64,000 nucleotides of DNA from a virus: positions 1 to 64,000 of IMG/VR virus record IMGVR_UViG_3300044946_000048; one strand, written 5' to 3'. The translations under genes and the position numbers were made by a program. Under the pieces are notes generated by a model that worked only from the letters and a program-made list of their open reading frames with translations, was not told the DNA's origin and did no database searches. The first letter of the stretch is position 1, and every line of letters begins with the position of its first letter. Positions 6,028 to 29,886 of this stretch are shown one piece after another.

Positions 6028-6758
6028 TATCTACTTCCTTGGGCCTGTTGCCCTTGTTGTGTTCTCAACTTGCTCAGCATCTGTTGCATATCAAACTGTA
6101 AATAACTCTGAGCGAATAAAGCTTTGTCCATCTCGCTCAAACCTTGCGCACGAGCCAATAATCCCGCGACTCCACGAGCGATGTACTGCTGCGCTCTGCC
6201 GTCTTGGCAAGAGTCCATGTAGTATCCCATGACCATGTTGTTGTACACGTCTGAGAACGAATCCGGAATAGGAGACCATGGGCTGTTGAGTGCTAGAAAA
6301 TTACTCGGTGCCTCTTGATAGATCAGGTTCACTTGGTAGATTGCATCCGGCACGGCTGAGAACCTGAGCGTCAAGAATGATGAAGGCTCGTCTGTTCCAC
6401 TGTTGTTAATCTGAACAGCTAGAGACTGCGGACGAGCCTGCTGCGTAGACTTTGCCAAAGGTTCATTGTTCTTAATGTCCTTGATTTCCCATATCTGCCC
6501 TGCGGCGTTTTGAACGGAAGCCTTCTCTAGATACCCGAAATTATATAAATCCGGTTGATAGTCCTGCTGTCCTGCAACGGTTACAACTTGGTCGTCATAG
6601 ATTCGATTCCAAGACCACTGAAACGGGGCTGCCAACATCGTGTTTCGGACGATAGATGCGATACCTATAATCGGCATAAGACTAGCGCCAATTGCCGGGT
6701 TCATGTACCTACAGAAAGGCGAAATGTAGTTGATAGTGTCCTGAAGGGCGTTGCTCAT
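6027..6758 (-). CDS. Head-tail adaptor-like protein (tail tubular A type)
   Basis: A 243-residue protein with the feel of gp11-like adaptors: early PFQWSWNRIYDD, then a DY motif, and late P-D-x-F/Y...Y with a helical C-terminus rich in Gln. It is a paralogue of the 467-residue protein at 7194-8597, which has PFPYKWNEIQV and PFPDKYEP at matching places. Its ATG overlaps the stop of an HNH gene (ATGA), so that gene was inserted between the two adaptor paralogues. Expected to sit between portal and nozzle. Confidence 0.55.
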   Translation of the reverse strand: MSNALQDTINYISPFCRYMNPAIGASLMPIIGIASIVRNTMLAAPFQWSWNRIYDDQVVTVAGQQDYQPDLYNFGYLEKASVQNAAGQIWEIKDIKNNEPLAKSTQQARPQSLAVQINNSGTDEPSSFLTLRFSAVPDAIYQVNLIYQEAPSNFLALNSPWSPIPDSFSDVYNNMVMGYYMDSCQDGRAQQYIARGVAGLLARAQGLSEMDKALFAQSYLQFDMQQMLSKLRTQQGQQAQGSR

Positions 6759-7183
6759 CTTTTGATCCAGTTATTGAAGACTTTCAAAATCCACTCTTTA
6801 AACTGGTCCTCCGTCTTATCACTCTTAGCCCTATTGCATTGAGTGCAACAGGGTCTACAATTACCTTGTACATAGCCAATGTTAGAATTTACTCTATCTA
6901 TACCGCTTCCTGTTTCAGGAAGGGATTCCTGACAGTAATAACACTTAGAAGAAATTAACTTTTTAAAATCTTCGAATGTTAATGTGACTTCTAACTCCCT
7001 AACTTTAGCTCCCGCTAAGAAAACCCGATAACGAGAATCAGGAGTGCGACGACGTGCCCTATCTCTGATACTGTGCTTTCTCCAACCATTTCGGATATTT
7101 CGACAAGCCTTACACCTTCCAGAATTATCTTTATTTTCCAGGATAAGGACGTGTCCTCGAATGCAAACATCTTTTTTATTCAT
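6755..7183 (-). CDS. HNH homing endonuclease
   Basis: A 142-residue protein starting at MNKKDVCIRGH (an upstream in-frame ATG overlaps the adaptor paralogue and is less likely). Zinc-binding pairs are C-x2-GH/C-x2-C at the N-terminus and CYYC near residue 80. The nuclease core reads GIDRVNSNIGYVQGNC followed by CxQCNRAKSD. It sits between two adaptor paralogues and shares four bases with the downstream gene. Acts on DNA to spread its own gene; the target site is unknown. It lacks the kissing-loop leader seen on other HNH genes here. Confidence 0.85.
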   Translation of the reverse strand: MNKKDVCIRGHVLILENKDNSGRCKACRNIRNGWRKHSIRDRARRRTPDSRYRVFLAGAKVRELEVTLTFEDFKKLISSKCYYCQESLPETGSGIDRVNSNIGYVQGNCRPCCTQCNRAKSDKTEDQFKEWILKVFNNWIKR

Positions 7184-7193
7184 GTTTTGCCTT

Positions 7194-8597
7194 TTAGTAC
7201 GGATAATTGTAGGGCCAGGCGGCACCCACGTACTTGTTACGTGCAGTTCCGGCGTTGAACACGTTTCGCTCAAGCGTGAACTGATTCTCTTCGAGTTCGC
7301 GGTCTTGCTTTGCTCGAAGATGAGTCAATGATTCCTTCCATAGAGCCCAATTCTTTTCGAACTTGGCTTGCACGGATGCTAGCGTACTATATCGATAGCA
7401 TTGCGCGATAACTCCGGCTCGGAATTGCGGTTCGTACTTGTCCGGGAACGGAGCTAATGTCTGTGACAACGGATTGTTCGCGAATGCCGCAGGCGGGTTG
7501 CTAAAGTTTGGCGCAGGCTTCTGTCCAACCAGGTTGAACTGCCACACGACTCCAGTCTGTGAAGGAACTGCACCTGGCCCAATACGCATTCCTATTGCGT
7601 TTGGATCGACGCACGTCCAGACAACTGTTCCATCTAATGTCAACGTACCGAATGGAGCATTAGCTGCGGGCCATGTCGGCATAACGAGCCCGCACGTACC
7701 GTAGACTGTTACAACCTGATAATTTCCATTCGGATCGATAATCTGCGTAATCGGGTTTGCAGGCTGTCCTTCAACCGTTGGCTGTGCGACAACGTTGTTA
7801 GAACCACCGATTAATCCACCGTAGACGTATGACCCTGGATTCGTTGTCATTGTTACAGTTACAGTTGGCTGTGAATACGTCGGTGTTATAGTTGGTCCTG
7901 TTGTGCTCACAACCACCCATGATCCATTATATCCGGTTGGATAAACATTGGATACCGTGAAGATACTTCCATTTGTTATTCCAAATGGAAGATAATTCAA
8001 TGTGAACACAGCCTGTCCGCCAGAGGCAGAAGACCATGTTACATTCGTCACCAAGCATCCCAACGGGTTCGTGTAAATTGCTCCTGGTGTCGGATTGTTT
8101 CCCTGTGTAGGTCCGCCAACATTACCCTGACCCCATGTTCCGTAATACAGCATATAGTTCGGGAAAGAGTTTACTTCGAACAAAGGATTCAAGAACCACG
8201 GATTAATATAGGCTCCAGTTGCCTGGCCTAACTGTCTCGCAGTCTCGACATATGTCCACTGCTTTGGAACTGTTGAACTGCTCAAGTTGATAGCGATACC
8301 GCGCTCCAACCATTCTAGTCCATAGAAAGATTGGTTCTGGCCGATGGCAATGCTAGGGTCAACAATCGCATAATCCTGTTGCCATGAGTTTGTATAGAAG
8401 TATGGAACTTGAATTTCGTTCCACTTGTAGGGGAAGGGCTGACCATAAATCTCATTCATCACGTCAGTGAGAATTGTGATGAACGGCTCAAGCTGATAGC
8501 CTGAAACGTTAGACAAAACAGGGCGCACATCTCCTAGGGGCAGCACTTTATCGAGAAGCATTTGTAAGGTTATCGTGGACTGAGAAGAGGTAGCCAT
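7194..8597 (-). CDS. Adaptor-like virion protein with inserted domain
   Basis: A 467-residue protein. N- and C-terminal parts match the 243-residue adaptor-like protein (PFPYKWNEI, WQQDYAI, FPDKYEPQFRAGVI). The middle (about 150-370) is an insertion rich in Gly, Thr and Val that carries one D-x-NGNYQ...TVVWTCVDP unit like those in the nozzle-like protein. The C-terminal tail is helical and charged. Likely part of the neck or tail. Functional split between the two adaptor paralogues cannot be told from sequence. Confidence 0.5.
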   Translation of the reverse strand: MATSSQSTITLQMLLDKVLPLGDVRPVLSNVSGYQLEPFITILTDVMNEIYGQPFPYKWNEIQVPYFYTNSWQQDYAIVDPSIAIGQNQSFYGLEWLERGIAINLSSSTVPKQWTYVETARQLGQATGAYINPWFLNPLFEVNSFPNYMLYYGTWGQGNVGGPTQGNNPTPGAIYTNPLGCLVTNVTWSSASGGQAVFTLNYLPFGITNGSIFTVSNVYPTGYNGSWVVVSTTGPTITPTYSQPTVTVTMTTNPGSYVYGGLIGGSNNVVAQPTVEGQPANPITQIIDPNGNYQVVTVYGTCGLVMPTWPAANAPFGTLTLDGTVVWTCVDPNAIGMRIGPGAVPSQTGVVWQFNLVGQKPAPNFSNPPAAFANNPLSQTLAPFPDKYEPQFRAGVIAQCYRYSTLASVQAKFEKNWALWKESLTHLRAKQDRELEENQFTLERNVFNAGTARNKYVGAAWPYNYPY

Positions 8598-10274: not shown

Positions 10275-12162
10275 CTACTGGATAGCCGGGACCGAGTCGA
10301 TGTAACGAATACGCTGAGTATTCGCACCACGAGCCGGAGGAAGTGTTACTGTTTGATGGCCAAATGTTACTCGTTCTTTCGAACGGGATCGGTCATTTCT
10401 GCCGATCTCTTACAGTTTCGTTTCCTGTAAGAGCAGACTATCGCATCGCCCCGTAGGGCGTTCTCTCGCTTAGTCGTTCACGGTGCCTTTCGGCTTCCGC
10501 CTTGTTTCCATTTCAGGGTTCAAGTCAATCAGAGAGAATTTTCTAACACTAGATTACGCTAGTGCGAGTCCACGGTTGCTGTCGCAACCCTTAAACTTAT
10601 ATGAGCACCATCCGCCGATTGTTCCCGTCGGATCATATGAAGATTCTGGGGCCTTGTCTACGACCTTGCAATCTATAGTTCTCCAATTACCGTCTCCTAG
10701 TTCCGTATCACCTGCAACGCCTAGCCATACGCCGATCATTGCGTAATTACCAAATACATAGGTACGATAAGCTGTCTTACCGCTTCCCTGGTAATTCGTT
10801 GTGGTCGTCACGAATGGTGTCTGACGGAAGGTGATGTTTGTGCCAGGAAGTTCGATATCCATGGTTTGGTCACTGCCAGCCATCTTGTCGAACTTGTCCA
10901 TCATTGCGTACTTCCACAAGTCAACGATTGAGTTGTTCACTGTCGTTGAGTTATAGATGTCACCCAATGTGTTCGGGCTAACTGCGCCGTAGAACCTGCC
11001 CCTCTTGCAAGGTAGCACGTTCTTGCTTACCAACTGTTGCTTCAACTCACGAACTGTTGCCAAATCGAGAGTGTAAGGTGAAGTTAGCAAGCTGCTCTGG
11101 TTAACCTGAGAGTCAACGCTTGACAAACCTGCGCTGTCGGCAACGGCTGAATATAGTTCAGAGATGCTCTGACCAGCCTGGTATCCTAGTTCAACTCCAC
11201 TGTTTCCGCTCAAGTCGTCGATGGCTGACGCCAAAACGAATGAACTGAAGTTCGTGTAGTTGTTCCCAAAATGTGTTTAGGTATCCTGTATCACCACAGG
11301 AACGCTCTCGTAGTCGCCTACGAGTTCAGACTCTCTCTTCACGCCTTGCGACGTGCCTGACATATTAGTCGTTACGGATGCGGGCTTGTTGAGGGACTTC
11401 ATTAGAAGATGCAGCTTCATACGCTCTTCAGGGGCTACCCGAGGTAGTCTAATATAACGTAATGCCGTCTTCGCTTGTTCCTTCTTAATTACGAGATAGG
11501 GAAGAACCGCTAAAATCAAGAGTTCTTGATTTTCTCTTCTCTCCATTTTCCACTGATAACAAACCTTCTTTGCGAAAGTGTTGCTACGTTGGGATAACGG
11601 TCGGTAAGACTGACCGAAATTGGATACCAGCCACTTCATCAGTTTCACTGAAGTGTTGGAAACTCCTATCTGTAAATCGAACGCGGGATATGGATTATTA
11701 TTCCTATCGTATATCATAGTCCGGCTAATGGAAAAGTATCCTTCTCCATCTAGCATAGCGGCTAGATAAGCTAATTTCGATTTATCTTTTGTAATCATTT
11801 CAAGCTTGCCTTTCCTCGGTATTGTCTGTTATTATACAGAGTTTCACCGATATAGTCAAGTTTAATGTGAGCAGAATTGTTTACTCACCAATCTGAGCAG
11901 GAGCACTCAACTGACCTACGAATTCAGGTGCGCCGATCACGCCGTCTGCTGACTGCGTTGTGTCTCCGGTCAATGTGTCGTATTGGAAGAACTGACGGTT
12001 GATACCGCTGTTCATAGCCTGTGTACGACGTTCTGCGCATTCCACGAATGCGTCAGTCTGACCCTTAAGGTTCGGAATCAATTCCTTATCGAAAATGATT
12101 GCCTGAGCCGTAAGGATATTTCCTACGTTTGCTGCTGAGGGATTGCTCCCGCCGCCTGCCAT
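10275..12162 (-). CDS. Major capsid protein, three exons split by two group I introns
   Basis: Proposed exons are 11887-12162, 10561-11264 and 10275-10371. Joined they give an in-frame 358-residue protein with junctions PAQIG/NNYTNF and GLAL/VTFGHQ. It looks like an N4 gp56-type or related HK97-fold capsid protein: helical FVLASAIDDLSG, LATVRELKQQLV, and FYGAVSP region. Exon 1 would stop at GAG-TAA in unspliced RNA. The protein forms the head shell, and the gene lies directly downstream of a scaffold-like gene. Exact splice points are inferred from frame and from U-before / G-at-end rules, and need RNA evidence. Confidence 0.75.
10372..10560 (-). other. Group I intron 2 in capsid gene (ORF-less, about 189 nt)
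   Basis: The minus-strand RNA shows a compact group I core: P7 strands ACGACTA and GATAGTC, a P8 hairpin CGCCC-TACG-GGGCG between them, then P9-type hairpins CTCTTACAG/CTGTAAGAG, GATCGG/CCGATC and CGTTC/GAACG up to the 3' end. The 5' end forms CACTAG/CTAGTG near the splice site. Removal restores the capsid frame. No ORF inside; it may depend on a nuclease elsewhere. Confidence 0.75.
11277..11798 (-). CDS. LAGLIDADG homing endonuclease inside capsid intron 1
   Basis: A 173-residue single-motif protein. LAYLAAMLDGEGYF at residues 9-22 is the LAGLIDADG helix with the catalytic acidic residue, followed by beta-rich VSNTSVKLMKWLVSNF. Such proteins dimerise and cut intron-less alleles to spread the intron. 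The start has GGAAAGG upstream and a consensus promoter about 45 bases further up. The stop lies about 10 bases before the proposed 3' splice site. Confidence 0.85.
   Translation of the reverse strand: MITKDKSKLAYLAAMLDGEGYFSISRTMIYDRNNNPYPAFDLQIGVSNTSVKLMKWLVSNFGQSYRPLSQRSNTFAKKVCYQWKMERRENQELLILAVLPYLVIKKEQAKTALRYIRLPRVAPEERMKLHLLMKSLNKPASVTTNMSGTSQGVKRESELVGDYESVPVVIQDT
11831..11859 (-). promoter_or_regulatory. Sigma70-like promoter inside capsid intron 1
   Basis: On the minus strand TTGACT (11854-11859), a 17 base spacer and TATAAT (11831-11836). It lies just upstream of the LAGLIDADG start at 11798 and would express the endonuclease independently of the late operon. Confidence 0.6.
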
Positions 12163-18408: not shown

Positions 18409-18684
18409 CTACTTCTGTACCGTAATGTCGTTATTGATTACGGTTTGCTGTACTGGCATATTGCGAGTGTGATAGTCGTCCAACCCTTCGTGAGCGACTA
18501 GAATACCAGTTATAGCGGTAATCGCCGCTGCAAAATCTGCGGTCAAATGACCTGTAAAAGCTAATGCAATTGTTGACGCACCAAAAACAATTGCCCAAAA
18601 TTCACTCAACCCACCTGTAAATTCATAAATAGGTCTAAGCGAACTATTGTGAAGAACCGAATTGACTTTGTCTTTCCAACTCAT
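18409..18684 (-). CDS. Holin-like membrane protein
   Basis: A 91-residue protein with two hydrophobic helices, about residues 27-45 (FWAIVFGASTIALAF) and 48-66, then a polar tail. GAGGAAGT precedes the ATG and lies inside the 3' end of the upstream HNH gene, which overlaps it by 41 bases. Size and topology fit a class II holin, but no lysin was recognised in the window, so other membrane roles are possible. Confidence 0.5.
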   Translation of the reverse strand: MSWKDKVNSVLHNSSLRPIYEFTGGLSEFWAIVFGASTIALAFTGHLTADFAAAITAITGILVAHEGLDDYHTRNMPVQQTVINNDITVQK

Positions 18685-19201
18685 ACTTCCTCAAATATTC
18701 TCGTACATCCGTTTCTATTCCTGGGAAACTTTCCAAATACCCAATAATCACATTACAGGTGTGATGAACGAGGCTTCTCAAATTTCCTGTTTTGTGGTCG
18801 TGATCCCAACAAGCCGCACCAACTTTCTCAGGGAGTGGCTTATGGCAAACATCGCACAATCCTTCCTGCTTTAAATACTGTTCCTGTTTAGCTTGCTGCA
18901 TTGCCGGAACATATGTCGCCGGAGCACCGTTCTTACGACGATAAGTCGCAACAGTGTTGTCTCCGCGTTTTCCTTTGCGGCGAGCCGAAACGTTCCTTGC
19001 TTCGCAAACTTTGCAAGCTATCTGTCGCCCGTATCTTAGACTTCTTCTAAGATTATTACCTGAGCGTTCTTCTTGGTTGCCACATTCGCATTGACAAATC
19101 CAATGATAGTCACGCCCTGCGCCGTTGTTTCCGACTCTCTCACCTAATTTGAGAACCCGCAGTTTCCCGAACCTTCTGCCTACCAAATCCTCGCATCTCA
19201 T
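18644..19201 (-). CDS. Endonuclease VII-like HNH protein
   Basis: A 185-residue protein. N-terminal GRRFGKLRVL-type segment with zinc pairs (CQCECG, CKVC), then the endonuclease VII core: CDVCHKPLP, WDHDHKTGNLRSLVHHTCN, and IIGYLE. Enzymes of this fold resolve branched DNA or act as free-standing homing nucleases; many dispersed copies here favour homing. It overlaps the holin-like gene and is preceded by the kissing-loop leader. Confidence 0.85.
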   Translation of the reverse strand: MRCEDLVGRRFGKLRVLKLGERVGNNGAGRDYHWICQCECGNQEERSGNNLRRSLRYGRQIACKVCEARNVSARRKGKRGDNTVATYRRKNGAPATYVPAMQQAKQEQYLKQEGLCDVCHKPLPEKVGAACWDHDHKTGNLRSLVHHTCNVIIGYLESFPGIETDVREYLRKYELERQSQFGSSQ

Positions 19202-19283: not shown

Positions 19284-19463
19284 TTAATGCTTGAAACCCT
19301 TCATCGTAGCAGCGAAGTTCGCCATATGCTGGATGTGAGAGTTACCTGAATTCTTTGCGTGCTCCAACTTCTCAGCCGGAATCGGTTTATCTTCGGAAAC
19401 ACCTAGAGCACGATGCAAACCACCTTTCCTAAAGGTGGTGGAGGGCGCGATATAAAGATACAT
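19284..19463 (-). CDS. Small protein, virion-associated type
   Basis: A 59-residue protein starting MYLYIAPSTTF, its ATG overlapping the stop of the upstream HNH gene (TAATG). Contains KGGLHRALGV and MANFAATMKGF, a pattern I associate with small unannotated phage proteins. Charged, soluble. Function unknown. Confidence 0.55.
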   Translation of the reverse strand: MYLYIAPSTTFRKGGLHRALGVSEDKPIPAEKLEHAKNSGNSHIQHMANFAATMKGFKH

Positions 19464-20077
19464 TATGCTTCGCCATGTCCACTTCTCCTTGATAAATAAA
19501 TTTTGTTCAACCACAAATCAAATTCTTCTATAGTCATATCTAGGCGACTTTGGTTACAGCGACGATGCGCTGGCAACACGTTATCCACGGTATTACTTCC
19601 GCCTCGTGCCATAGGCACAACATGATCCAAGCTCAATCTCCAAGGCGACCTCAAGTCTAACAACGTCTTCTCGCCACAAAGATGACAATTAAAATCACAA
19701 CGTTCGACAACCGATTTCCATTCTTCTACAGTTAAAGTAGAAACAACGCCTAACTCCGCTGCTCTAAGACGAGCTTTTACTACCGCAATAGAAAAAGGAT
19801 TAGAAGATTCTCGCCAACGACGATTTTCTTCCCGCGCCTTCTCAGGGTTCTTAGCTCTTCGTGCTCTAGTCGCCGCGTTAACTTGTAATCTATTTTCTTC
19901 CCGACGAGCCCACGGATTAATCTTCTCAAGCCAAAGATGTCCTCTTTTCGCACGACACTCATTGCTGGCTTTTCGAGTGCAATCCTTGCAACGATATTGC
20001 AATCCATCTGACGCAGTTTGATTCTTTTGAAAAGAATCTAACGGCAGTTCTCGCTTACAGTGACAACAAATCTTCAT
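19463..20077 (-). CDS. HNH homing endonuclease
   Basis: A 204-residue protein. N-terminal zinc knuckle CCHCKRELP...CKDC, Arg-rich middle, and an HNH core CHLCGEK...LSLDHVVPMARGG...NVLPAHRRCNQSR (about residues 125-180). Preceded by a kissing-loop leader and ending in TAATG with the next small gene. Confidence 0.88.
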   Translation of the reverse strand: MKICCHCKRELPLDSFQKNQTASDGLQYRCKDCTRKASNECRAKRGHLWLEKINPWARREENRLQVNAATRARRAKNPEKAREENRRWRESSNPFSIAVVKARLRAAELGVVSTLTVEEWKSVVERCDFNCHLCGEKTLLDLRSPWRLSLDHVVPMARGGSNTVDNVLPAHRRCNQSRLDMTIEEFDLWLNKIYLSRRSGHGEA

Positions 20078-23500: not shown

Positions 23501-23574
23501 TGGTCAGGAAAGAAGAAATCGAATCTTCGCCTCTCCCTTCCGACGGGAGTAGACTACCACTATCAGATTTCCTG
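23501..23574 (-). tRNA. tRNA-Pro(CGG)
   Basis: Encoded CCA at 23501-23503, perfect 7 bp acceptor stem, T-loop TTCGATT, anticodon loop GTCGGAA on a CTCCC/GGGAG stem. Reads CCG. Confidence 0.85.
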
Positions 23575-23582
23575 ATGTAAAC

Positions 23583-23673
23583 TGGTCGGGGCGAGAGGAA
23601 TTGAACCTCCAAGGGAGTTTGTCCACCCGCTTCCAAAGCGGGACCGCTGCCAGATTACGGACCTACACCCCGA
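23583..23673 (-). tRNA. tRNA-Pro(TGG)
   Basis: Encoded CCA, T-loop TTCAATT, anticodon loop TTTGGAA on CCCGC/GCGGG. The D-arm and variable region are longer than normal. Reads CCA. Confidence 0.75.
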
Positions 23674-23680
23674 TTAAAAT

Positions 23681-23755
23681 TGGTTCCCGCGTGTGGACTC
23701 GAACCACAATGAACGCTTTCAGAGAGCGTCATCCTGCCAATTGAATGACATGGGA
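23681..23755 (-). tRNA. tRNA-Gln(CTG)
   Basis: Encoded CCA, T-arm GTGG-TTCGAGT-CCAC, anticodon loop CTCTGAA on ACGCT/AGCGT. Reads CAG. Confidence 0.9.
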
Positions 23756-23762
23756 ATAAAAT

Positions 23763-23837
23763 TGGTTCCGGCGGATCGATTCGAACGATCATGACAAGTT
23801 TCAAAGACTTGCAGCCTGCCCGTTGGCTGACATCGGA
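23763..23837 (-). tRNA. tRNA-Gln(TTG)
   Basis: Encoded CCA, T-loop TTCGAAT, anticodon loop CTTTGAA on CAAGT/ACTTG. Reads CAA. Confidence 0.9.
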
Positions 23838-23872
23838 ATAGAAACATATATGTCACTTTCAGCAACTAAGAT

Positions 23873-23947
23873 TGGAGCACAAGGTTGGAATCGAACCAAC
23901 GAGTATTCGTTTTGCAGACGAACGCCTTTCCACTTGGCTACTCATGC
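23873..23947 (-). tRNA. tRNA-Cys(GCA)
   Basis: Encoded CCA, discriminator T as expected for Cys, anticodon loop CTGCAAA on TTCGT/ACGAA, T-loop TTCGATT. Confidence 0.9.
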
Positions 23948-23953
23948 TTAAAC

Positions 23954-24050
23954 TGGAGGATAATGTAGGATTCGAACCCACGGTGCCGGAATGTTTACCG
24001 GACACTTCTGTTTTCAGGACAGACGGCATAATCCGCTCGCCCAATTATCC
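23954..24050 (-). tRNA. tRNA-Ser(TGA), unusual C33
   Basis: Long variable arm (CCGG/CCGG type stem), T-loop TTCGAAT, encoded CCA. Anticodon stem TCTGT/ACAGA closes the loop CCTGAAA, which puts C rather than the near-universal U at position 33. Confidence 0.8.
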
Positions 24051-24059
24051 TTAAAATTT

Positions 24060-24150
24060 TGGCGGAAGGTTTGTGATTTGAACACAAACAACCTTGCGGT
24101 TGACTTAGGTTTAGCAAACCTATACGTTAGCCTGGTTCCGTCAACCTTCC
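24060..24150 (-). tRNA. tRNA-Ser(GCT)
   Basis: Long variable arm CAACC/GGTTG, T-loop TTCAAAT, anticodon loop TTGCTAA on TAGGT/ACCTA, encoded CCA. Its first 10 bases overlap the stop end of the HNH gene at 24141-24509. Confidence 0.9.
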
Positions 24151-24509
24151 GTATTCTTAGGTATCATAGCCGGATGAGGCTTTTGAAATTTCTTAACCCA
24201 TCCCGCTTTTGCCTCTTCACTCCACTCAGTAGGCTTTCTTCCAGCCTTACGATTGCAATTGAGATGTGAATAAGCAATATTCTGTAAATCCCAAAACAAG
24301 TTAGGAGAGTTGTCAAGCCACGGTATCTTGTGCTCTATACTAAACTCTTCAACCGTTTCTATTTTCTTAAGGCAGCGAAAACAACTATCTTTTCCGCACT
24401 CTCGTGCTAACGAAAATAAAAGAATTCGATGAAGTCTTGTCGCTGCCGTTGTATAAGGCATGCCTAACTGCGCAAGCTCCTTATCTTTATTCCTATAAAT
24501 TCTAGGCAT
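24141..24509 (-). CDS. HNH homing endonuclease in tRNA array
   Basis: A 122-residue protein starting MPRIYRNKDKEL with GAGGAGGG upstream. Core: GMPYTTAATRLHRILLF, CFRCLKKI, SIEHKIPWL, and IAYSHLNCNRKAGRKP. It is related to the HNH protein at 26402-26890. Its stop codon lies inside the 5' end of tRNA-Ser(GCT). A kissing-loop leader precedes it, and RNase P RNA lies just upstream of that. Confidence 0.87.
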   Translation of the reverse strand: MPRIYRNKDKELAQLGMPYTTAATRLHRILLFSLARECGKDSCFRCLKKIETVEEFSIEHKIPWLDNSPNLFWDLQNIAYSHLNCNRKAGRKPTEWSEEAKAGWVKKFQKPHPAMIPKNTEG

Positions 24510-24510
24510 C

Positions 24511-24555
24511 TTGCCCTCCTCTAAAAGGCAAGTCGGGGATGTTAGAGGCATCCCC
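24511..24555 (-). promoter_or_regulatory. Kissing-loop leader, copy 6
   Basis: Minus strand: hairpin 1 (24535-24555, stem GGGGATG/CATCCCC) loop CCTCTAA. Hairpin 2 (24511-24531, stem TTGCC/GGCAA) contains TTAGAGG, its exact complement, within the GAGGAGG ribosome site. Palindrome TGTACGTACA at 24564-24573 upstream. Confidence 0.85.
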
Positions 24556-24578
24556 AACCTTAATGTACGTACAAACTT

Positions 24579-24873
24579 ATTGGCAAACAATAGCCAGGAT
24601 TCTGTTCGGCTTGCGCCGCGACTATCATCCGTCTTTGCCCTTAACCCGGCTATCGTCGCGCTAGACGCGCTCCAGCCCTATTTAAGGTTGCTCCAAGAGT
24701 GGAGTGCCCAGACTTGAATGACAATGCTATGAGAACAGAGGCCCGAAGGCTTGTATGAGAAGCATTGTACCTGGCCTTACCCGTCCGCTTACGCGGCCCG
24801 CAACTTCCACGGCTCTTTGTCTAGTGGAGTCCTGAACTTACCTCGGTTTCCCGCGATAGTCTAGTTTACCATT
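24579..24873 (-). ncRNA. rnpB: RNase P RNA
   Basis: Minus-strand RNA of about 290 nt with bacterial type A landmarks in order: P1 TGGTAAAC with GTTTGCCA; P2 GACTATC with GATAGTC; CGAGGTAAGTTCAGGACTCC matching the P4/CR-I consensus; CACTCCAC...TTGGAGCAACC then AAATAGGG, as in the E. coli CR-IV region; and ACAGAATCCTGGCTA near the 3' end as the other P4 strand. It would be the catalytic RNA that removes tRNA 5' leaders, placed inside the tRNA array. Shorter than the E. coli RNA (377 nt), so some outer helices are missing. The 5' end overlaps the stop of the secreted-protein gene by about two bases. Confidence 0.85.
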
Positions 24874-25417
24874 AAGACTTATCTAAACCGCCCAATCCTG
24901 TTGAGCCGCCAGTAAGAAAATTCATCAATGTGTCTACTACTGCTTCCGAATCCGAAACATCCATCTGCTGGCATGTTTGAAATCTATCGTCTGCCCCAAC
25001 CGTGATGTCGCTCTCCGGTCCAATGAAACCATAATACACGTGGCCTAACTTCTCGTCAACAGTTAAAATTCCAATGATGCGATTACCTAGCCGAGCGCCA
25101 TTTATTACTAGGTTATGCTTTTCATAAACCGTCGCGGCGCTGAACGGGATTATGCCGTCTTTTGTTTTCGGCTCTTCCTTGTAACTGAACACTACCGGGT
25201 TATCTTCCTTCTTAACCGTGGTCGCATCCGTCAAGAAATCTCCGAATGTAGCAGTCGTTCGCTCTGCATTCAACACCATGTGAATGACAGTAAAATCCCG
25301 CGAACCACAACTTGCGATATTATACTCAACAACAGGCTTCGGCTCGGGTTGCTGTGGCATAACTGGTGTTGCCAGCGCCAACATAACTCCGAGGATTATG
25401 GCACGGATCGCTTTCAT
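24872..25417 (-). CDS. Secreted protein of unknown function
   Basis: A 181-residue protein starting MKAIRAIILGVMLALATPVM, a clear signal peptide likely cut after Gln-22 or so. The rest is soluble with three Cys and beta-like segments. It sits inside the tRNA array between RNase P RNA and tRNA-Arg(CCT), behind a hairpin leader. Probably periplasmic; not recognised. Confidence 0.6.
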   Translation of the reverse strand: MKAIRAIILGVMLALATPVMPQQPEPKPVVEYNIASCGSRDFTVIHMVLNAERTTATFGDFLTDATTVKKEDNPVVFSYKEEPKTKDGIIPFSAATVYEKHNLVINGARLGNRIIGILTVDEKLGHVYYGFIGPESDITVGADDRFQTCQQMDVSDSEAVVDTLMNFLTGGSTGLGGLDKS

Positions 25418-25512
25418 GTTGCATCCTAAGAGCACCTGATATACAAGGCATTAGTGCTCTGCCGCCTACAAACGCCTAGTAAACTAGGCACGTAGTCCCC
25501 TGCTCGGTAAAC

Positions 25513-25588
25513 TGGAAGGCACACTCGGAATCGAACCGAGAATCTACTCTTTAGGAAAGAGTCGCATTGTCCCTTGTGCTATGCGCCC
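25513..25588 (-). tRNA. tRNA-Arg(CCT)
   Basis: Encoded CCA, anticodon loop TTCCTAA on ACTCT/AGAGT, T-loop TTCGATT. Reads AGG. Confidence 0.9.
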
Positions 25589-25596
25589 ATAAAACT

Positions 25597-25671
25597 TGGA
25601 GGGCCGTCCCGGAATTGAACCGAGGTCTCTTCGTTAGAAGCGAAGCGCACTGTCCGTTGTACGAACAGCCC
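25597..25671 (-). tRNA. tRNA-Arg(TCT)
   Basis: Encoded CCA, anticodon loop CTTCTAA on CTTCG/CGAAG, T-loop TTCAATT. Reads AGA. Confidence 0.9.
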
Positions 25672-25677
25672 TTAAAC

Positions 25678-25751
25678 TGGCAGACCGTGGATGAATCGAA
25701 CACCCGCTTCTTGATTTGGAGGCAAGAAGACTACCACTATCTTAACAGCCT
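25678..25751 (-). tRNA. tRNA-Trp(CCA)
   Basis: Encoded CCA end, discriminator G, anticodon loop CTCCAAA with a C-T mismatch closing the stem, T-loop TTCGATT. A Gly(TCC) reading would misplace U33, so Trp is preferred. Confidence 0.75.
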
Positions 25752-25758
25752 GCGAAAC

Positions 25759-26109
25759 TTATTTGATTCCTAATTTCTTCAGCAACAAGTAATTCTTGAT
25801 TGCGTAATATGCTTCCCCGGCTGCAACGACTCCGGAATAAATCATACCAGCTAACCAGACCTTGCTGCCTATAAGCAATCCGATGAATAGATACGCCGCG
25901 CCGCTCAACCAGGTTGCGAACGACTGTCCAACCTTACTAAACAGCCAACGCATTATCGGATTGCCTTCAACAAAACCCTTATTAGCCCCGAGGCCAATCA
26001 TCGTAGTAATACCGTCACCGATGATTGCTAGCAAGCCGAGAACTAAAACACCGAACAGCGCTAACCACGGACCCGCTGGCACAGACATACCGATTGGTGT
26101 AATCATCAT
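25759..26109 (-). CDS. Small polytopic membrane protein
   Basis: A 116-residue protein with about three hydrophobic helices (residues 14-35, 60-82, 84-100). GLGANKGFVEGNPIM followed by RWLF is typical of small DUF5658-like membrane proteins. Two adjacent ATGs overlap the upstream stop. Lies between tRNA-Trp and tRNA-Gly. Function unknown. Confidence 0.6.
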   Translation of the reverse strand: MMITPIGMSVPAGPWLALFGVLVLGLLAIIGDGITTMIGLGANKGFVEGNPIMRWLFSKVGQSFATWLSGAAYLFIGLLIGSKVWLAGMIYSGVVAAGEAYYAIKNYLLLKKLGIK

Positions 26110-26282
26110 GCCTCGCTCAGAAATTGTTCACATATTGCCCATGCGGACTTCATCATCCAAGCACGAGCATTGTTGATTCGAACTCGCTCTCCGGTTCTTG
26201 CATCGAACACGGTCAACGTAATCTTCGGTGGAAGATTGAGCCGATAACCAGAAAACGTTCGTTCAACTATTCTATCTCTCAT
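26106..26282 (-). CDS. Small protein between tRNAs
   Basis: A 58-residue protein starting MRDRIVERTFSGYRL. The ATG lies six bases after the CCA of tRNA-Gly(TCC), with no ribosome site, so RNase processing of the tRNA would leave a nearly leaderless message. It ends in a four-base overlap with the membrane protein gene. Basic start, helical end. Unknown. Confidence 0.5.
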   Translation of the reverse strand: MRDRIVERTFSGYRLNLPPKITLTVFDARTGERVRINNARAWMMKSAWAICEQFLSEA

Positions 26283-26287
26283 AAAAT

Positions 26288-26362
26288 TGGAGCGGGACAT
26301 CGGATTCGAACCGACCCTCTCAGTTTGGAAGACTAATGTGCTACCACTAACACTAGTCCCGC
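26288..26362 (-). tRNA. tRNA-Gly(TCC)
   Basis: Encoded CCA, anticodon loop CTTCCAA, T-loop TTCGAAT, 7 bp acceptor GCGGGAC. Reads GGA. Confidence 0.9.
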
Positions 26363-26371
26363 TTTGAAACT

Positions 26372-26445
26372 TGGAGCGACGTGCGGTAATCGAAACCGCG
26401 CCTAGTGCTTGGCAAGCACTCGTTCTACCACTATACCAACATCGC
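26372..26445 (-). tRNA. tRNA-Gly(GCC)
   Basis: Encoded CCA, anticodon loop TTGCCAA on AGTGC/GCACT. T-loop is TTTCGATT-like. Its 5' 44 bases are also the 3' end of the HNH gene at 26402-26890. Confidence 0.88.
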
Positions 26446-26890
26446 TCGGAACTTTTTCTCTCGTATAGTGCTGGCACTCTTTACATAGAGTATGATATCC
26501 AGACCAGTGAGAAGAATTTTTACTAAACTGCACCGTTGGGAGAAACTTCTTATGTCTATTGCACCAACTCATTCCTGACGGGCATTTAATTCTCAATTTC
26601 GAGAACTGCCCGTCTGGACCTGCTGGACGATCAGGCCTGTTACACCAAGTATGAGAAAATGCAATATTCTCCAAATCCCAAAATAATTTTGTGTCTACGT
26701 GCAGCCAAGGTTTCTTATGTTCTATTGTAAGGTCTTCGACCTTCACTATCTTAGACGTACACTTAAAACAAACATCTTCGTTTAACTTTTGAAGACACCT
26801 AAACAAAAGTATCTTTTTAAGTCTCCCCGAGGCTGTACCCCAAGGCATTCCTAGCTGTGATGCCTTCACAGCATTTGAAGTTCCTGACAT
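26402..26890 (-). CDS. HNH homing endonuclease in tRNA array
   Basis: A 162-residue protein starting MSGTSNAVKASQLG with GGAAGG upstream. GMPWGTASGRLKKILLF, CFKCTSKI, TIEHKKPWL, IAFSHTWCNRP form the HNH part, as in the protein at 24141-24509. A second zinc domain follows (CPSGMSWCNRHK...CKECQ). Its 3' end reads 44 bases into tRNA-Gly(GCC), and its start is 22 bases after a tRNA-Met that lacks CCA. It looks inserted between tRNAs. No kissing-loop leader. Confidence 0.87.
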   Translation of the reverse strand: MSGTSNAVKASQLGMPWGTASGRLKKILLFRCLQKLNEDVCFKCTSKIVKVEDLTIEHKKPWLHVDTKLFWDLENIAFSHTWCNRPDRPAGPDGQFSKLRIKCPSGMSWCNRHKKFLPTVQFSKNSSHWSGYHTLCKECQHYTREKVPSDVGIVVERVLAKH

Positions 26891-26911
26891 GGATACCTTC
26901 CTGTCTTTAAC

Positions 26912-26986
26912 TTGCGCCAAATGGGAGTCGAACCCAATATCACTAGTTTATGAGGCTAGTATGATTATCCGTTTCACTCTGCCGCA
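26912..26986 (-). tRNA. tRNA-Met(CAT), no encoded CCA
   Basis: Anticodon loop CTCATAA with mismatch below, T-loop TTCGACT, acceptor TGCGGCA/TGGCGCA with one mismatch. Unlike its neighbours the 3' end reads AAGT rather than CCA, directly before an HNH gene. Confidence 0.75.
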
Positions 26987-26990
26987 AACT

Positions 26991-27066
26991 TGGTCGCTCT
27001 GGTTGGAATCGAACCAACTATGCACGGTTTATGAGACCGCTGCCTCATCCGGCTAGCTTCAAAGCG
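26991..27066 (-). tRNA. tRNA-Met(CAT)
   Basis: Encoded CCA, anticodon loop CTCATAA on GCGGT/ACCGT, T-loop TTCGATT. Could be elongator Met or, after lysidine modification, Ile. Confidence 0.88.
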
Positions 27067-27072
27067 AAAACT

Positions 27073-27156
27073 TGGTACCCCGCGAGAGATTTGAACTCCC
27101 ATGACCGAAGTCGCCGCGTTCTAAGCGCGGTGTGTCTGCCGTTCCACCAGCAGGGC
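27073..27156 (-). tRNA. tRNA-Leu(TAG)
   Basis: Encoded CCA, long variable arm, anticodon loop CTTAGAA on CCGCG/CGCGG, T-loop TTCAAAT. Reads CTA. Confidence 0.9.
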
Positions 27157-27162
27157 ATAAAA

Positions 27163-27264
27163 TCAATTCCAGAACAAACTAATTTGAAACTTTAAATCTT
27201 TTACAAACCAGGCGACAAGTATTGTGATGAATACTACGCCACCGATGACTTCAAATATGTTCAT
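27163..27264 (-). CDS. Tiny membrane protein (33 residues)
   Basis: ATG at 27262-27264, stop at 27163-27165, reading MNIFEVIGGVVFITILVAWF then a short polar tail. A single transmembrane helix. It fills the gap between tRNA-Leu(TAG) and tRNA-Glu(TTC). No clear ribosome site, so support is moderate. Confidence 0.45.
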   Translation of the reverse strand: MNIFEVIGGVVFITILVAWFVKDLKFQISLFWN

Positions 27265-27268
27265 AAAC

Positions 27269-27342
27269 TGGTACTCGGTGGGAGACTCGAACTCCCTTTG
27301 CTGGATTGAAAGTCCAACGTATTACCCATATACGAACTGAGC
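27269..27342 (-). tRNA. tRNA-Glu(TTC)
   Basis: Encoded CCA, anticodon loop CTTTCAA on TTGGA/TCCAG, T-loop TTCGAGT. Reads GAA. Confidence 0.9.
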
Positions 27343-27348
27343 AAAATC

Positions 27349-27430
27349 TTGAGCCCTTGCTTTCCTTACAGTCCGGCAAGTTAGCATTCAGCCGCAATCG
27401 TGTAAGCGACGTGCTGAAGCCTCGGCTCAA
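27349..27430 (-). ncRNA. Folded RNA of unknown type in tRNA array
   Basis: Minus strand: perfect closing stem TTGAGCC/GGCTCAA, inner hairpins TTCAGC/GCTGAA and CTTGC/GCAAG. tRNA-sized (82 nt) but no T-arm and no CCA. Confidence 0.4.
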
Positions 27431-27443
27431 ACTCAAATAAACT

Positions 27444-27517
27444 TGGTACCCGGAAGCGGAATCGAACCGCTGCTACATCCGTGAGAGGGATGCGTCCTAC
27501 CGTTAAACGATCTGGGC
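27444..27517 (-). tRNA. tRNA-Glu(CTC)
   Basis: Encoded CCA, anticodon loop CTCTCAC on CATCC/GGATG, T-loop TTCGATT. Reads GAG. Confidence 0.9.
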
Positions 27518-27554
27518 ACTGGCGGGCTCCGCCTTTCGACTCGGCCCGTGAAAC

Positions 27555-27632
27555 TGGCGGAATGGATGGGATTCGAACCCACGATAATCTGTCGTGACAG
27601 GACAGTGCCATTGGCCGCTAGGCGACCACTCC
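27555..27632 (-). tRNA. tRNA-Asp(GTC)
   Basis: Encoded CCA, discriminator G, anticodon loop CTGTCAC on CTGTC/GACAG, T-loop TTCGAAT. Confidence 0.9.
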
Positions 27633-27641
27633 GTATAAAAT

Positions 27642-27716
27642 TGGAGCTAAGTGATGGAAATCGAACCATCGTTTCAGCTTTACCAAAGCTGCGTCTTACC
27701 ATTAGACGAACCAAGC
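27642..27716 (-). tRNA. tRNA-Thr(GGT)
   Basis: Encoded CCA, anticodon loop TTGGTAA on CAGCT/AGCTG, T-loop TTCGATT. Reads ACC/ACT. Confidence 0.9.
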
Positions 27717-27720
27717 AAAC

Positions 27721-27794
27721 TGGAGCCAAGTAAAGGAATTGAACCTTTCTTTGTGGTTTACGAAACCACCGTATTACCGCTATACGAACAAGGC
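27721..27794 (-). tRNA. tRNA-Thr(CGT)
   Basis: Encoded CCA, anticodon loop TTCGTAA on GTGGT/ACCAC, T-loop TTCAATT. Reads ACG. Confidence 0.9.
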
Positions 27795-27802
27795 ATAAAC
27801 TC

Positions 27803-27878
27803 TGGAGCACCGCATTCGATTCGAACGAATGTGACGAAGGTACAAGCTTCGTATACTAGACCGCTATATGAGCAGTGC
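27803..27878 (-). tRNA. tRNA-Thr(TGT)
   Basis: Encoded CCA, anticodon loop CTTGTAC on CGAAG/CTTCG, T-loop TTCGAAT. Reads ACA. Confidence 0.88.
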
Positions 27879-27888
27879 TCGAAACTAA

Positions 27889-28024
27889 TTCCAGGCAACA
27901 ATCGCGTCGAGAGTCTCTTGAAGAGGGAGTCGAACCCTGCGCCCGATTTTACTCGGGCACCCAGACCATCCTGGCTATCCCCACGTGGCGGGGATAGAAG
28001 TATCTCAAAACTACGGCACTGGAA
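27889..28024 (-). ncRNA. tRNA-like RNA, unit B of the TTACTTCT family
   Basis: Minus strand: closing stem TTCCAG/CTGGAA, then TGCCGTAG...GATACTTCT, an 8 bp hairpin CTATCCCC/GGGGATAG, a hairpin GCCCGA/TCGGGC, and a canonical T-arm AGGG-TTCGACT-CCCT. No CCA and no fitting anticodon loop. Shares the D-arm-like motif with unit A and with three RNAs before the TROVE gene. Confidence 0.5.
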
Positions 28025-28031
28025 AATTGTA

Positions 28032-28127
28032 AGTCGCAGGGCAACAGGCGCATCAGGATAGTGTGGGGATTTCACCCACGTTCCTTTTAGGCAAAGAAGT
28101 AACCCGACACTAACGGCACCTACGACT
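28032..28127 (-). ncRNA. tRNA-like RNA, unit A of the TTACTTCT family
   Basis: Minus strand: 9 bp closing stem AGTCGTAGG/CCTGCGACT, motif TGCCGTTAG...GGTTACTTCT, and a T-arm-like hairpin GTGGG-TGAAATC-CCCAC. 96 nt. Not a standard tRNA: no anticodon arm identified and no CCA. Confidence 0.5.
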
Positions 28128-28132
28128 AAAAT

Positions 28133-28208
28133 TGGCTGTGTCCCTCGGATTCGAACCGAGACCCTAGGCATTAACAGTGCCCTATCATACCAGTTAGACC
28201 AGAACACA
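28133..28208 (-). tRNA. tRNA-Asn(GTT)
   Basis: Encoded CCA, discriminator G, anticodon loop CTGTTAA, T-arm CTCGG-TTCGAAT-CCGAG. Confidence 0.9.
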
Positions 28209-28218
28209 ACGTAAACTT

Positions 28219-28293
28219 TGGAGGCCCCACTCGGATTCAAACCGAGGTTAACGGTTTCGAAGACCGTAGTCCTATTCGCTGAACGATAGAGCC
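28219..28293 (-). tRNA. tRNA-Arg(TCG)
   Basis: Encoded CCA, anticodon loop CTTCGAA on ACGGT/ACCGT, T-loop TTTGAAT. Reads CGA. Confidence 0.88.
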
Positions 28294-28298
28294 AAACT

Positions 28299-28373
28299 TG
28301 GAGGACCGTCGGGGAGTCGAACCCCGCTCCTGGCGTTCGTAGCGCCATGCATTGTCCGATATACGAACAGTCC
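28299..28373 (-). tRNA. tRNA-Arg(ACG)
   Basis: Encoded CCA, anticodon loop CTACGAA on TGGCG/CGCCA, T-loop TTCGACT. Reads CGT and, if deaminated, CGC/CGA. Confidence 0.9.
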
Positions 28374-28384
28374 GCAAAAATTAA

Positions 28385-28457
28385 TTGAACGCATTCTCCG
28401 TCGTAACACAGAGACACAGGCACGAAGGTTACGATGTTCGTGTCGCCTTACGTTCAA
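28385..28457 (-). ncRNA. Folded RNA of unknown type in tRNA array
   Basis: Minus strand: perfect 7 bp closing stem TTGAACG/CGTTCAA and an inner hairpin CACGAA/TTCGTG. 73 nt, no T-arm consensus, no CCA. Confidence 0.4.
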
Positions 28458-28460
28458 AAT

Positions 28461-28536
28461 TGGTAGCCCGTAAGAGAATCGAACTCTTCCGGTCTGGGTG
28501 TAAACCAGATGCATACGACCAGTTTGCTAACAGGCT
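28461..28536 (-). tRNA. tRNA-Val(TAC)
   Basis: Encoded CCA, anticodon loop TTTACAC on TCTGG/CCAGA, T-loop TTCGATT. Reads GTA. Confidence 0.9.
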
Positions 28537-28546
28537 ACAGAAAATA

Positions 28547-28595
28547 GCGGCGTACTGCGATACAGGGCTTTCAACCTGCATACGAATTTTGCCGC
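28547..28595 (-). ncRNA. Short armless tRNA-like RNA
   Basis: Minus strand: closing stem GCGGC/GCCGC around one hairpin ATGCAGG/CCTGTAT whose loop reads TTGAAAGC. About 49 nt, lacking D and T arms. Could be a decayed tRNA or a separate small RNA. Confidence 0.3.
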
Positions 28596-28601
28596 GAAAT
28601 T

Positions 28602-28675
28602 TGGTGGACCGTGGGGGAGTCGGACCCCCAACGCTTCGGTGCAAGCGAAGCAGTATCCCATTTACCTAACAGCCC
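28602..28675 (-). tRNA. tRNA-Ala(TGC)
   Basis: Encoded CCA, anticodon loop CTTGCAC on CTTCG/CGAAG. T-loop TCCGACT replaces the usual TTC start, an oddity. Reads GCA. Confidence 0.85.
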
Positions 28676-28682
28676 ATAAAAT

Positions 28683-28756
28683 TGGTTCCCAGGGATGGAG
28701 TCGAACCATCGGCCTCTTCTTTATCAGAGAAGCATTCTGCCGCTGAACTACCCGGA
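28683..28756 (-). tRNA. tRNA-Ile(GAT)
   Basis: Encoded CCA, anticodon loop CTGATAA on CTTCT/AGAAG, T-loop TTCGACT. Acceptor pairing is imperfect, so the 5' end is approximate. Reads ATC. Confidence 0.85.
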
Positions 28757-28764
28757 AACGAAAC

Positions 28765-28854
28765 TGGTGGAAGCGAAAGGATTCGAACCTTTTAGTGCCG
28801 CAAGGGCATTCTGTTTTACAGACAGACACGACCCGCCGTCTTCGCCGCACTTCC
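28765..28854 (-). tRNA. tRNA-Tyr(GTA)
   Basis: Encoded CCA, long variable arm, anticodon loop CTGTAAA on TCTGT/ACAGA, T-loop TTCGAAT. Confidence 0.9.
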
Positions 28855-28867
28855 ACTGAAACTTGTC

Positions 28868-28956
28868 TGGGAACCGACGGGGGATTCTCCCGTCCCATCC
28901 TACGGGCCGCTAGCAGGTATCCGTAAGCATTCAATCTATCTCGAACTGCGTTCCCA
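28868..28956 (-). ncRNA. Cloverleaf-like RNA without tRNA identity
   Basis: Minus strand: perfect closing stem TGGGAAC/GTTCCCA, a D-like arm GC..TTC/GAA..GC, a hairpin TACGG/CCGTA, and a T-position hairpin GACGGG/CCCGTC with loop AGAATCC instead of TTCRANT. No CCA. Confidence 0.4.
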
Positions 28957-28963
28957 CGAAACT

Positions 28964-29038
28964 TGGTACCCCGACCGAGACTCGAACTCGGACATTCTCC
29001 TTAAAAGGGAGTATTGCTGCCACTCGCATCCTCAGGGT
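28964..29038 (-). tRNA. tRNA-Lys(TTT)
   Basis: Encoded CCA, anticodon loop CTTTTAA, T-loop TTCGAGT, 7 bp acceptor ACCCTGA. Overlaps the 3' end of the small ORF at 29001-29156. Confidence 0.88.
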
Positions 29039-29156
29039 GTAAAATCTGTTCTAAAGATATCTTCCCTCTATCGAATTCCAATGTCCTTTGTCTTACAATG
29101 GTGTGGGCCTTAACTGCGTTCCTACGTGCTGCTTCACTATGTTTAACCGATCTCAT
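29001..29156 (-). CDS. Short ORF behind a kissing-loop leader
   Basis: A 51-residue basic protein, MRSVKHSEAARRNAVKAHTI at its start, with GGGAGGG before the ATG. The frame ends inside the anticodon loop of tRNA-Lys(TTT), as HNH genes in this array run into tRNAs. No nuclease motif remains, so it may be a shortened homing-gene remnant that kept its leader, or a small regulator. Confidence 0.5.
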   Translation of the reverse strand: MRSVKHSEAARRNAVKAHTIVRQRTLEFDRGKISLEQILHPEDASGSNTPF

Positions 29157-29157
29157 A

Positions 29158-29197
29158 TACCCTCCCTAAAGGGTAGTCCGGGGTGTTAGGGCACCCC
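29158..29197 (-). promoter_or_regulatory. Kissing-loop leader, copy 7
   Basis: Minus strand: hairpin 1 (29180-29197, stem GGGGTG/CACCCC) loop CCCTAA. Hairpin 2 (29158-29175, stem TACCC/GGGTA) loop TTTAGGGA, complementary and overlapping the ribosome site. Palindrome TGTAGCTACA at 29206-29215 upstream, as in copy 5. Confidence 0.8.
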
Positions 29198-29220
29198 GAA
29201 CCCGATGTAGCTACAAACTT

Positions 29221-29296
29221 TGGTGCGCCTACTCGGACTTGAACCGAGACCTTACCGGGTAAGAACCGGAGATTCTGCCACTCGAAATCCAGGCAC
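29221..29296 (-). tRNA. tRNA-Lys(CTT)
   Basis: Encoded CCA, anticodon loop TTCTTAC on CCGG/CCGG, T-loop TTCAAGT. Reads AAG. Confidence 0.88.
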
Positions 29297-29306
29297 ACTG
29301 AAAACT

Positions 29307-29392
29307 TGGTGCGGCTGGCAGGATTCGGACCTGCACGCTCGTTGGAGCACGGGGGTTTAAGTCCCGCTTGTCTTCCATTCCATCACAACCGC
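29307..29392 (-). tRNA. tRNA-Leu(TAA)
   Basis: Encoded CCA, long variable arm, anticodon loop CTTAAAC, T-loop TCCGAAT, acceptor GCGGTTG. Reads TTA. Confidence 0.85.
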
Positions 29393-29396
29393 AAAT

Positions 29397-29470
29397 TGGT
29401 CGTCGGTGAGTGAATCGAACACTCGTCAAGCCCTTATAAGGAGGCCATTCTGCCATTGAACTAACCGACA
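29397..29470 (-). tRNA. tRNA-Ile(TAT)
   Basis: Encoded CCA, anticodon loop CTTATAA on an imperfect stem, T-loop TTCGATT, acceptor TGTCGGT. Reads ATA. Confidence 0.8.
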
Positions 29471-29479
29471 AAAATCAAT

Positions 29480-29560: not shown

Positions 29561-29565
29561 AAACT

Positions 29566-29637: not shown

Positions 29638-29657
29638 AATCTTTTAGTCATTTTAGT

Positions 29658-29724: not shown

Positions 29725-29734
29725 ACTCTAAACT

Positions 29735-29818: not shown

Positions 29819-29830
29819 ATAATATTTTAT

Positions 29831-29876: not shown

Positions 29877-29886
29877 AGAGGAAACT

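What the first reader, a model, noticed from the sequence alone, without database searches (positions are those of the whole stretch)
10275..12162. Major capsid gene split by two group I introns
Unspliced reading gives three fragments; removing 11265-11886 and 10372-10560 restores a continuous 358-codon frame. Intron 2 is only about 189 nt with a full P7/P8/P9 core, among the smallest plausible. Intron 1 overlaps its LAGLIDADG ORF with the catalytic core.
Basis: partly seen in the sequence, partly recalled or inferred. Interest (0 to 1): 0.68.

Follow-up and report, generated by a model that had tools for sequence, protein, structure and literature searches.

The report
Phage capsid gene with two introns
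The shell-protein gene of this soil phage is interrupted by two self-splicing RNA introns whose true borders differ from those first proposed, and related phages carry similar tiny introns at about 17 or more places in this one gene, with signs that the introns move between places.

Summary
About 25 intronless relatives read ...QIG-EW-NNY... and ...SYKF-HQTV... at the two sites. The introns are therefore 11267-11882 (616 nt) and 10360-10593 (234 nt, not 189), and the spliced protein has 345 aa, not 358. The corrected junctions have the group I marks: exon U, intron-terminal G, and a P1 with U.G at the 5' splice site.

The group I core of each intron is supported by strong compensatory changes in relatives. 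Intron 1 carries a LAGLIDADG endonuclease gene that overlaps the core. Intron 2 carries no gene and is invisible to Rfam's group I model, but a model trained only on introns from other sites finds it at 195 bits.

The larger result is a swarm. In 77 related capsid genes I find 75 introns at 22 positions (17 after merging positions 3 nt or less apart), up to four per gene. In 18 long records every detected small intron lies in this gene. Near-identical cores sit at different sites, while the guide segment stays with its site, which points to movement or core exchange between sites. Phage capsid introns are known already. Splicing is inferred, not shown.

The parts
11883..12162 (-). Major capsid gene, exon 1 (280 nt), ends ...GGTGAGT
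   Evidence: Splice-aware alignment to intronless relatives
11267..11882 (-). Intron 1, group I, 616 nt: AAACAATTC...ACATTTTG; insertion site 93.1 (L077 numbering)
   Evidence: exon U / intron G; P1 GUGAGU/GCUCAC with U.G; possible P10 GGAA/UUCU; RF00028 22.1 bits, sub-threshold
11867..11888 (-). Intron 1 P1 (exon GUGAGU 11888-11883 with guide GCUCAC 11872-11867)
   Evidence: RNAfold returns this hairpin; relative L062 has GUGAAU/GUUCAC, a compensatory change
11285..11373 (-). Intron 1 3' half of core: P7 11373-11367 with 11332-11327, P3' 11361-11356, P8 11355-11340, P9 11324-11307, P9.1 11300-11285
   Evidence: Helices scored on alignment A5 of 9 relatives, coordinates
11277..11798 (-). LAGLIDADG homing endonuclease ORF inside intron 1 (173 aa), last ~32 aa overlap the ribozyme core
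   Evidence: Fold of residues 1-140 matches I-MsoI/I-CreI, E ~1e-7; 78-80% identical copies in L072, L076, L080 introns; Pfam LAGLIDADG_1 only 13.8 bits, below cut-off
10594..11266 (-). Major capsid gene, exon 2 (673 nt), GGAACAAC...TATAAGTT
10360..10593 (-). Intron 2, group I, 234 nt, no ORF: TAAGGGTTGC...ACATTTGG; insertion site 317.2
10567..10597 (-). Intron 2 P1 (AGUUUA 10597-10592 with UGGACU 10572-10567, U.G at splice site) and its extension hairpin 10589-10574
   Evidence: RNAfold; hairpin sequence differs but stays paired in L018, L059, L079
10434..10538 (-). Intron 2 core after P2 (10565-10546): P3 10538-10532 with 10467-10461, P4 10524-10518 region with 10506-10501, P6 10500-10480, P7 10478-10471 with 10440-10434, P8 10460-10447
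   Evidence: P3, P4, P6, P7 paired in 100% and P8 in 99.5% of cells over 44 introns; coordinates
10372..10433 (-). Intron 2 P9 (10433-10407), P9.1 (10406-10388), P9.2 (10385-10372)
10275..10359 (-). Major capsid gene, exon 3 (85 nt with stop)

Best explanation
The major capsid gene of an uncultured podovirus-like phage, probably infecting Acidobacteriota, carries two group I introns. Each folds its transcript into the P1-P9 ribozyme, uses guanosine to cut after the exon U in P1, and joins the exons after its terminal G, restoring a 345-aa capsid protein (inferred; not shown by RNA data). Intron 1 should home into intronless alleles through its LAGLIDADG enzyme, which matches the I-CreI/I-MsoI homodimer class (inferred from fold). 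Intron 2 is an ORF-less mini-intron from a family that has colonised this one gene at 17-22 positions across the phage clade. Its core sequences move or are exchanged between sites, while the guide segment stays matched to its site.
For: Intronless alleles define both empty sites. Of 75 introns, 66 allow exon U / intron G at the best junction, against about 8.9 expected. Mini-intron structure: 89.4% of cells paired (71.6% shuffled), 464 both-side-changed cells (149 shuffled). Intron 1 family: 277 of 304 cells paired (shuffled mean 240), 48 covarying cells (16). A model built from introns at other sites finds intron 2 at 195 bits, E 9e-49. Model R1 ranks the three Twort introns, which RF00028 also finds (63.6-100.9 bits), first among 160 kb of T4/Twort. 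Exon-guide compensation: site 312.1 GGUGGAU/GUCCAC, GGAGGAU/GUCCUC, GGUGGCU/GGCCAC. Capsid identity: PHROG 1357 major head protein, E 1.4e-6 for intronless L077; 34% identity to Tunturi_3 major head protein, E 3e-45, and matching gene order. Movement: window core 91% identical to an intron at site 340.2 whose host gene is only 68% identical and ranks 62nd in similarity; starred branches force at least 4 changes for site 317.2.
Against: No RNA data exist, so splicing is inferred. RF00028 misses intron 2 and gives intron 1 only a sub-threshold score. The eight HEG introns 3-4 nt away (sites 94.1, 94.2) end their exon in A, and L062 (93.1) seems to lack a terminal G, so not every relative is canonical. 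P4 and P5 of intron 1 hold only in its four close relatives. The capsid structure model failed (pLDDT 29).
Confidence: 0.93

Rival explanations
1. The introns splice at the borders given by the first reader, giving a 358-aa protein.
For: That removal also gives an open frame, with exon U and intron-terminal G at both introns.
Against: The product lacks the invariant EW and has about 15 residues absent from all relatives. Both U's would pair with A, not G, and intron 2 would lose its P1 and the conserved GUAACA...G end.
Confidence: 0.02
2. The inserts are decayed introns or assembly errors; the capsid gene is broken and this contig is a non-functional phage.
For: No RNA evidence; single metagenome contig.
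Against: All core helices are kept by compensatory change, junctions are exact, exons are intact, and introns of the same kind occur in dozens of independent contigs.
Confidence: 0.03
3. Same introns, different route of spread: movement between sites is by DNA recombination or gene conversion between introns already resident in one gene, or by homing enzymes acting in trans, not by RNA reverse splicing.
For: The four 317.2 introns keep similar site-specific 5' guide segments while their cores fall in different lineages, as core exchange would give. HNH-like genes sit in related introns at 22.2, 30.0, 31.2 and 206.2.
Against: Core exchange does not explain how the 17 or more sites were first occupied; no enzyme gene was found in any intron at sites 276-341.
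Confidence: 0.5

Closest known systems
Staphylococcus phage Twort orf142 group I introns
   Same: Small phage group I introns, several in one gene; found by the model built from this family; same GUAACA 3' motif and P7/P9 pattern
   Different: Different gene and host phylum; RF00028 scores 64-101 bits there but nothing for intron 2 here
Mycobacteriophage LittleE major capsid intron (PMC3706429)
   Same: Group I-like intron with a LAGLIDADG ORF in a major capsid gene; splicing shown by RT-PCR and N-terminal sequence
   Different: One intron, ORF on the opposite strand, 819 bp
crAss-like Zeta phages (PMC7886860)
   Same: Major capsid gene split into five fragments by group I introns
   Different: Introns and inteins spread over many genes; here only the capsid gene in all 18 records tested
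Jug phages (PMC12363816)
   Same: Small group I introns of about 206 nt; splicing supported by metatranscriptomes for 37 of 76
   Different: About 18.5 introns per genome in many genes; huge gut phages
I-MsoI / I-CreI homing endonucleases
   Same: Predicted fold of the intron 1 ORF (E ~1e-7)
   Different: 15-20% identity; C-terminal 32 residues overlap the ribozyme core

Membership tests
Group I intron (intron 2) | P3-P8 core with P7 bulge and P4-P6 | tested here: met
   P3, P4, P6, P7 100% and P8 99.5% paired over 44 introns, many compensatory changes; first P7 pair is G-C in 23 and A-U in 21
Group I intron (intron 2) | P1 with U.G at the 5' splice site and terminal G | tested here: met
   AGUU|UA with UGGACU; ends ...UUUGG
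Group I intron (intron 2) | Match to Rfam RF00028 | tested here: not met
   No match at E <= 10. Not a defining feature but the usual test; I treat the failure as a limit of the model, since R1/R2 link the family to Twort introns that RF00028 does find
Group I intron (intron 1) | P3/P7/P8/P9 core, P1 with U.G, terminal G | tested here: met
   P3 53/54, P7 45/45, P9 62/63, P9.1 45/45 cells paired; P8 30/36; P4 and P5 only in the close relatives; GUGAGU/GCUCAC
Group I intron (both) | Guanosine-dependent self-splicing | not testable with these tools
   Needs in vitro transcription with GTP and Mg2+
LAGLIDADG homing endonuclease | Fold and LAGLIDADG motif | tested here: met
   LAYLAAMLDGEGYFSI; I-MsoI/I-CreI fold; Pfam score below cut-off
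LAGLIDADG homing endonuclease | Cleaves the intronless site | not testable with these tools
   Needs a cleavage assay
Major capsid protein | Homology to known major head proteins and gene position | tested here: met
   PHROG 1357 for intronless homologues, Tunturi_3, terminase-portal-two genes-capsid order
Major capsid protein | HK97 fold | tested here: inconclusive
   Model pLDDT 29

The most novel reading that the evidence does not exclude
The mini-introns spread to new positions of the capsid gene through RNA: excised introns reverse-splice into the abundant late capsid mRNA at sites that match only 3-5 guide bases, followed by copying back into DNA. This would explain the many sites, the near-identical guide (GGACUCC-like) shared by introns at several sites, and the restriction to this one gene.
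Probability: 0.2. Interest if true: 0.85.

Novelty: new member of a known kind. Interest (0 to 1): 0.52.

Why it matters
Phage group I introns, even in capsid genes, are known, so the two introns alone are a modest find. The clade-wide pattern is more unusual: one essential gene colonised at 17-22 positions by a single family of 164-247 nt ORF-less ribozymes that Rfam misses, with intronless alleles up to 95% identical as controls. It gives a natural series for asking how ORF-less group I introns reach new sites, a question argued mostly from fungal rDNA. It also warns that capsid genes of such phages are easily mis-annotated as fragments.

Tried and rejected
RF00028 at gathering and loose thresholds does not detect intron 2, and at gathering detects nothing in 15 relatives' loci. 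AlphaFold of the capsid protein from 17 close sequences failed (pLDDT 29) and was not used for a fold search. A profile search of solved structures with the capsid alignment gave only kinesin noise. A first automatic guide-sequence scan picked a wrong guide for intron 2 (GACUUG, part of P4); folding and the same-site relatives showed the guide to be UGGACU. One splice alignment (L078, truncated) was meaningless and left out. Text searches for an earlier report of this capsid hot spot found none in the held library, which is not proof of absence.

Full report
What is there. The window is part of an 88,619-base virus record. Its minus strand carries terminase, portal, two further genes and then a gene in three pieces. 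The same order is found in the cultured podovirus Tunturi_3 of an Acidobacteriota host, whose major head protein is a 34% identical relative (PMC11924767). An intronless close homologue, L077, matches PHROG 1357 major head protein at E 1.4e-6 and Tunturi_3 matches it at 1.2e-13. I take the gene as the major capsid gene; a structure model failed and adds nothing.

Junctions. I built a profile of 21 intronless proteins and aligned every locus with introns allowed anywhere in any phase. For the window the result is intron 1 = 11882-11267 and intron 2 = 10593-10360, and a 345-aa protein that reads QIG-EW-NNY and SYKF-HQTV like its relatives. These borders put a U at the end of each upstream exon, a G at the end of each intron, and a U.G pair at each 5' splice site. 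RNAfold, given only the sequence, returns P1 of intron 1 and P1, its extension and P2 of intron 2. The aligner gave a small bonus for U and G, so I re-scored without it: 66 of 75 introns allow U/G among their equally good junctions, against 8.9 expected by chance.

Group I identity. On 44 mini-introns the named structure has 89.4% standard pairs (71.6% after shuffling) and 464 cells changed on both sides (149 after shuffling); sliding the partners destroys it. The first pair of P7 is G-C in 23 and A-U in 21 introns, never broken. RNAalifold found essentially the same P3-P9.1 helices unaided. A model from 22 introns at sites other than 317.2 finds the window intron at 195 bits; its next best hit in T4, Twort and the rest of this phage is a Twort intron at 21 bits. 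The model from all 44 also puts the three introns of Twort that RF00028 recognises at the top. RF00028 itself finds no intron at its cut-off in 15 relatives' loci. For intron 1, P3, P7, P9 and P9.1 are paired in 205 of 207 cells over nine relatives, with compensatory changes in all but the invariant P7; P4 and P5 hold only in the four closest.

The endonuclease. The ORF in intron 1 has a LAGLIDADG-like motif; residues 1-140 are modelled well and match I-MsoI and I-CreI at E about 1e-7, while residues 141-173, which overlap P7-P9.1, are modelled poorly. Copies 78-80% identical lie in introns of L072, L076 and L080, a few nucleotides away from the window's site; two of these stop at P8, so the overlap is not needed by the enzyme. 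Other capsid introns hold two-domain LAGLIDADG or HNH-like ORFs.

The swarm. In 77 capsid genes, 30 have no intron, 26 have one, 11 two, 9 three and 1 four (lower bounds, since some contigs are cut). The introns occupy 22 positions, or 17 if positions 3 nt or less apart are merged, as small alignment errors could split them. Most are 164-247 nt without ORF. Model R1 finds 69 copies in 83 loci, at the mapped capsid-gene introns. In 18 long records (17 virus contigs of 78-119 kb and one genome bin) all 25 hits are in the capsid gene. The window phage has only the one over 88.6 kb. Elsewhere in IMG/VR the family also sits in distant capsid, portal, terminase and nrdD genes, so the restriction is a property of this phage clade, not of the ribozyme.

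Movement. The closest intron cores to the window's are at sites 340.2, 341.0 and 321.2 (90-91%). The host gene of the first, L074, is only 68% identical and ranks 62nd in similarity. The 5' guide segment instead is closest to the other 317.2 introns. On the core tree, well-supported branches force at least four changes for site 317.2, three for 290.2 and three for 315.1. Alleles 94-95% identical differ in having or lacking an intron. I read this as gain or loss plus exchange of cores between sites. Whether new sites are reached by reverse splicing, by homing enzymes in trans or by DNA recombination is open.

Known versus new. Introns in phage capsid genes are known with proven splicing (LittleE, PMC3706429), five-fragment capsid genes are known in crAss-like phages (PMC7886860), and small group I introns at about 18 per genome are known in Jug phages (PMC12363816). 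The two introns here are new members of that kind. What I did not find described is one gene serving as the only intron target of a phage clade at so many positions. The held paper library is incomplete, so that is a lead and not a proof.

Noticed in passing
L066, L067, L068, L072, L073, L076, L080, L082, sites 94.1/94.2: HEG-carrying introns 3-4 nt downstream of the window's intron 1 site seem to use an exon ending in A, paired A-U with the guide, instead of the usual U.G; L062 (93.1) seems to end in A rather than G.
   Followed up: partly
L059:3837-4000, L058:4096-4260, L067:1355-1522: Complete-looking group I introns of only 164-168 nt, lacking P2 or P9.1/P9.2, among the smallest I know of.
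   Followed up: partly
L030, L031, L039, L048, L054, L059, L082 (sites 22.2, 30.0, 31.2) and L080 (206.2): Same core family with an HNH-like ORF; at the first three sites it starts 13-33 nt after the 5' splice site. ORF-less versions sit at 22.2, 30.0 and 31.2 in other phages, so gene gain or loss can be followed.
   Followed up: partly
window 23501-30150: Cluster of 34 predicted tRNA genes covering most amino acids, on the minus strand.
   Followed up: no
window 6755-7273, 18644-19201, 19463-20077, 26402-26920, 36440-36970: Several ORFs that look like free-standing HNH / endonuclease VII-like genes, some overlapping or abutting structural genes (only 6755-7273 was tested against PHROGs).
   Followed up: no
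L154, L118, L168, L125, L157, L129: The same mini-intron family interrupts nrdD, other capsid, portal and terminase genes in other uncultured phages.
   Followed up: partly
L081, L082: Contigs of an 'uncultured archaeon LFW-28' genome bin carry capsid genes of this phage clade, so the bin is probably contaminated with phage.
   Followed up: no
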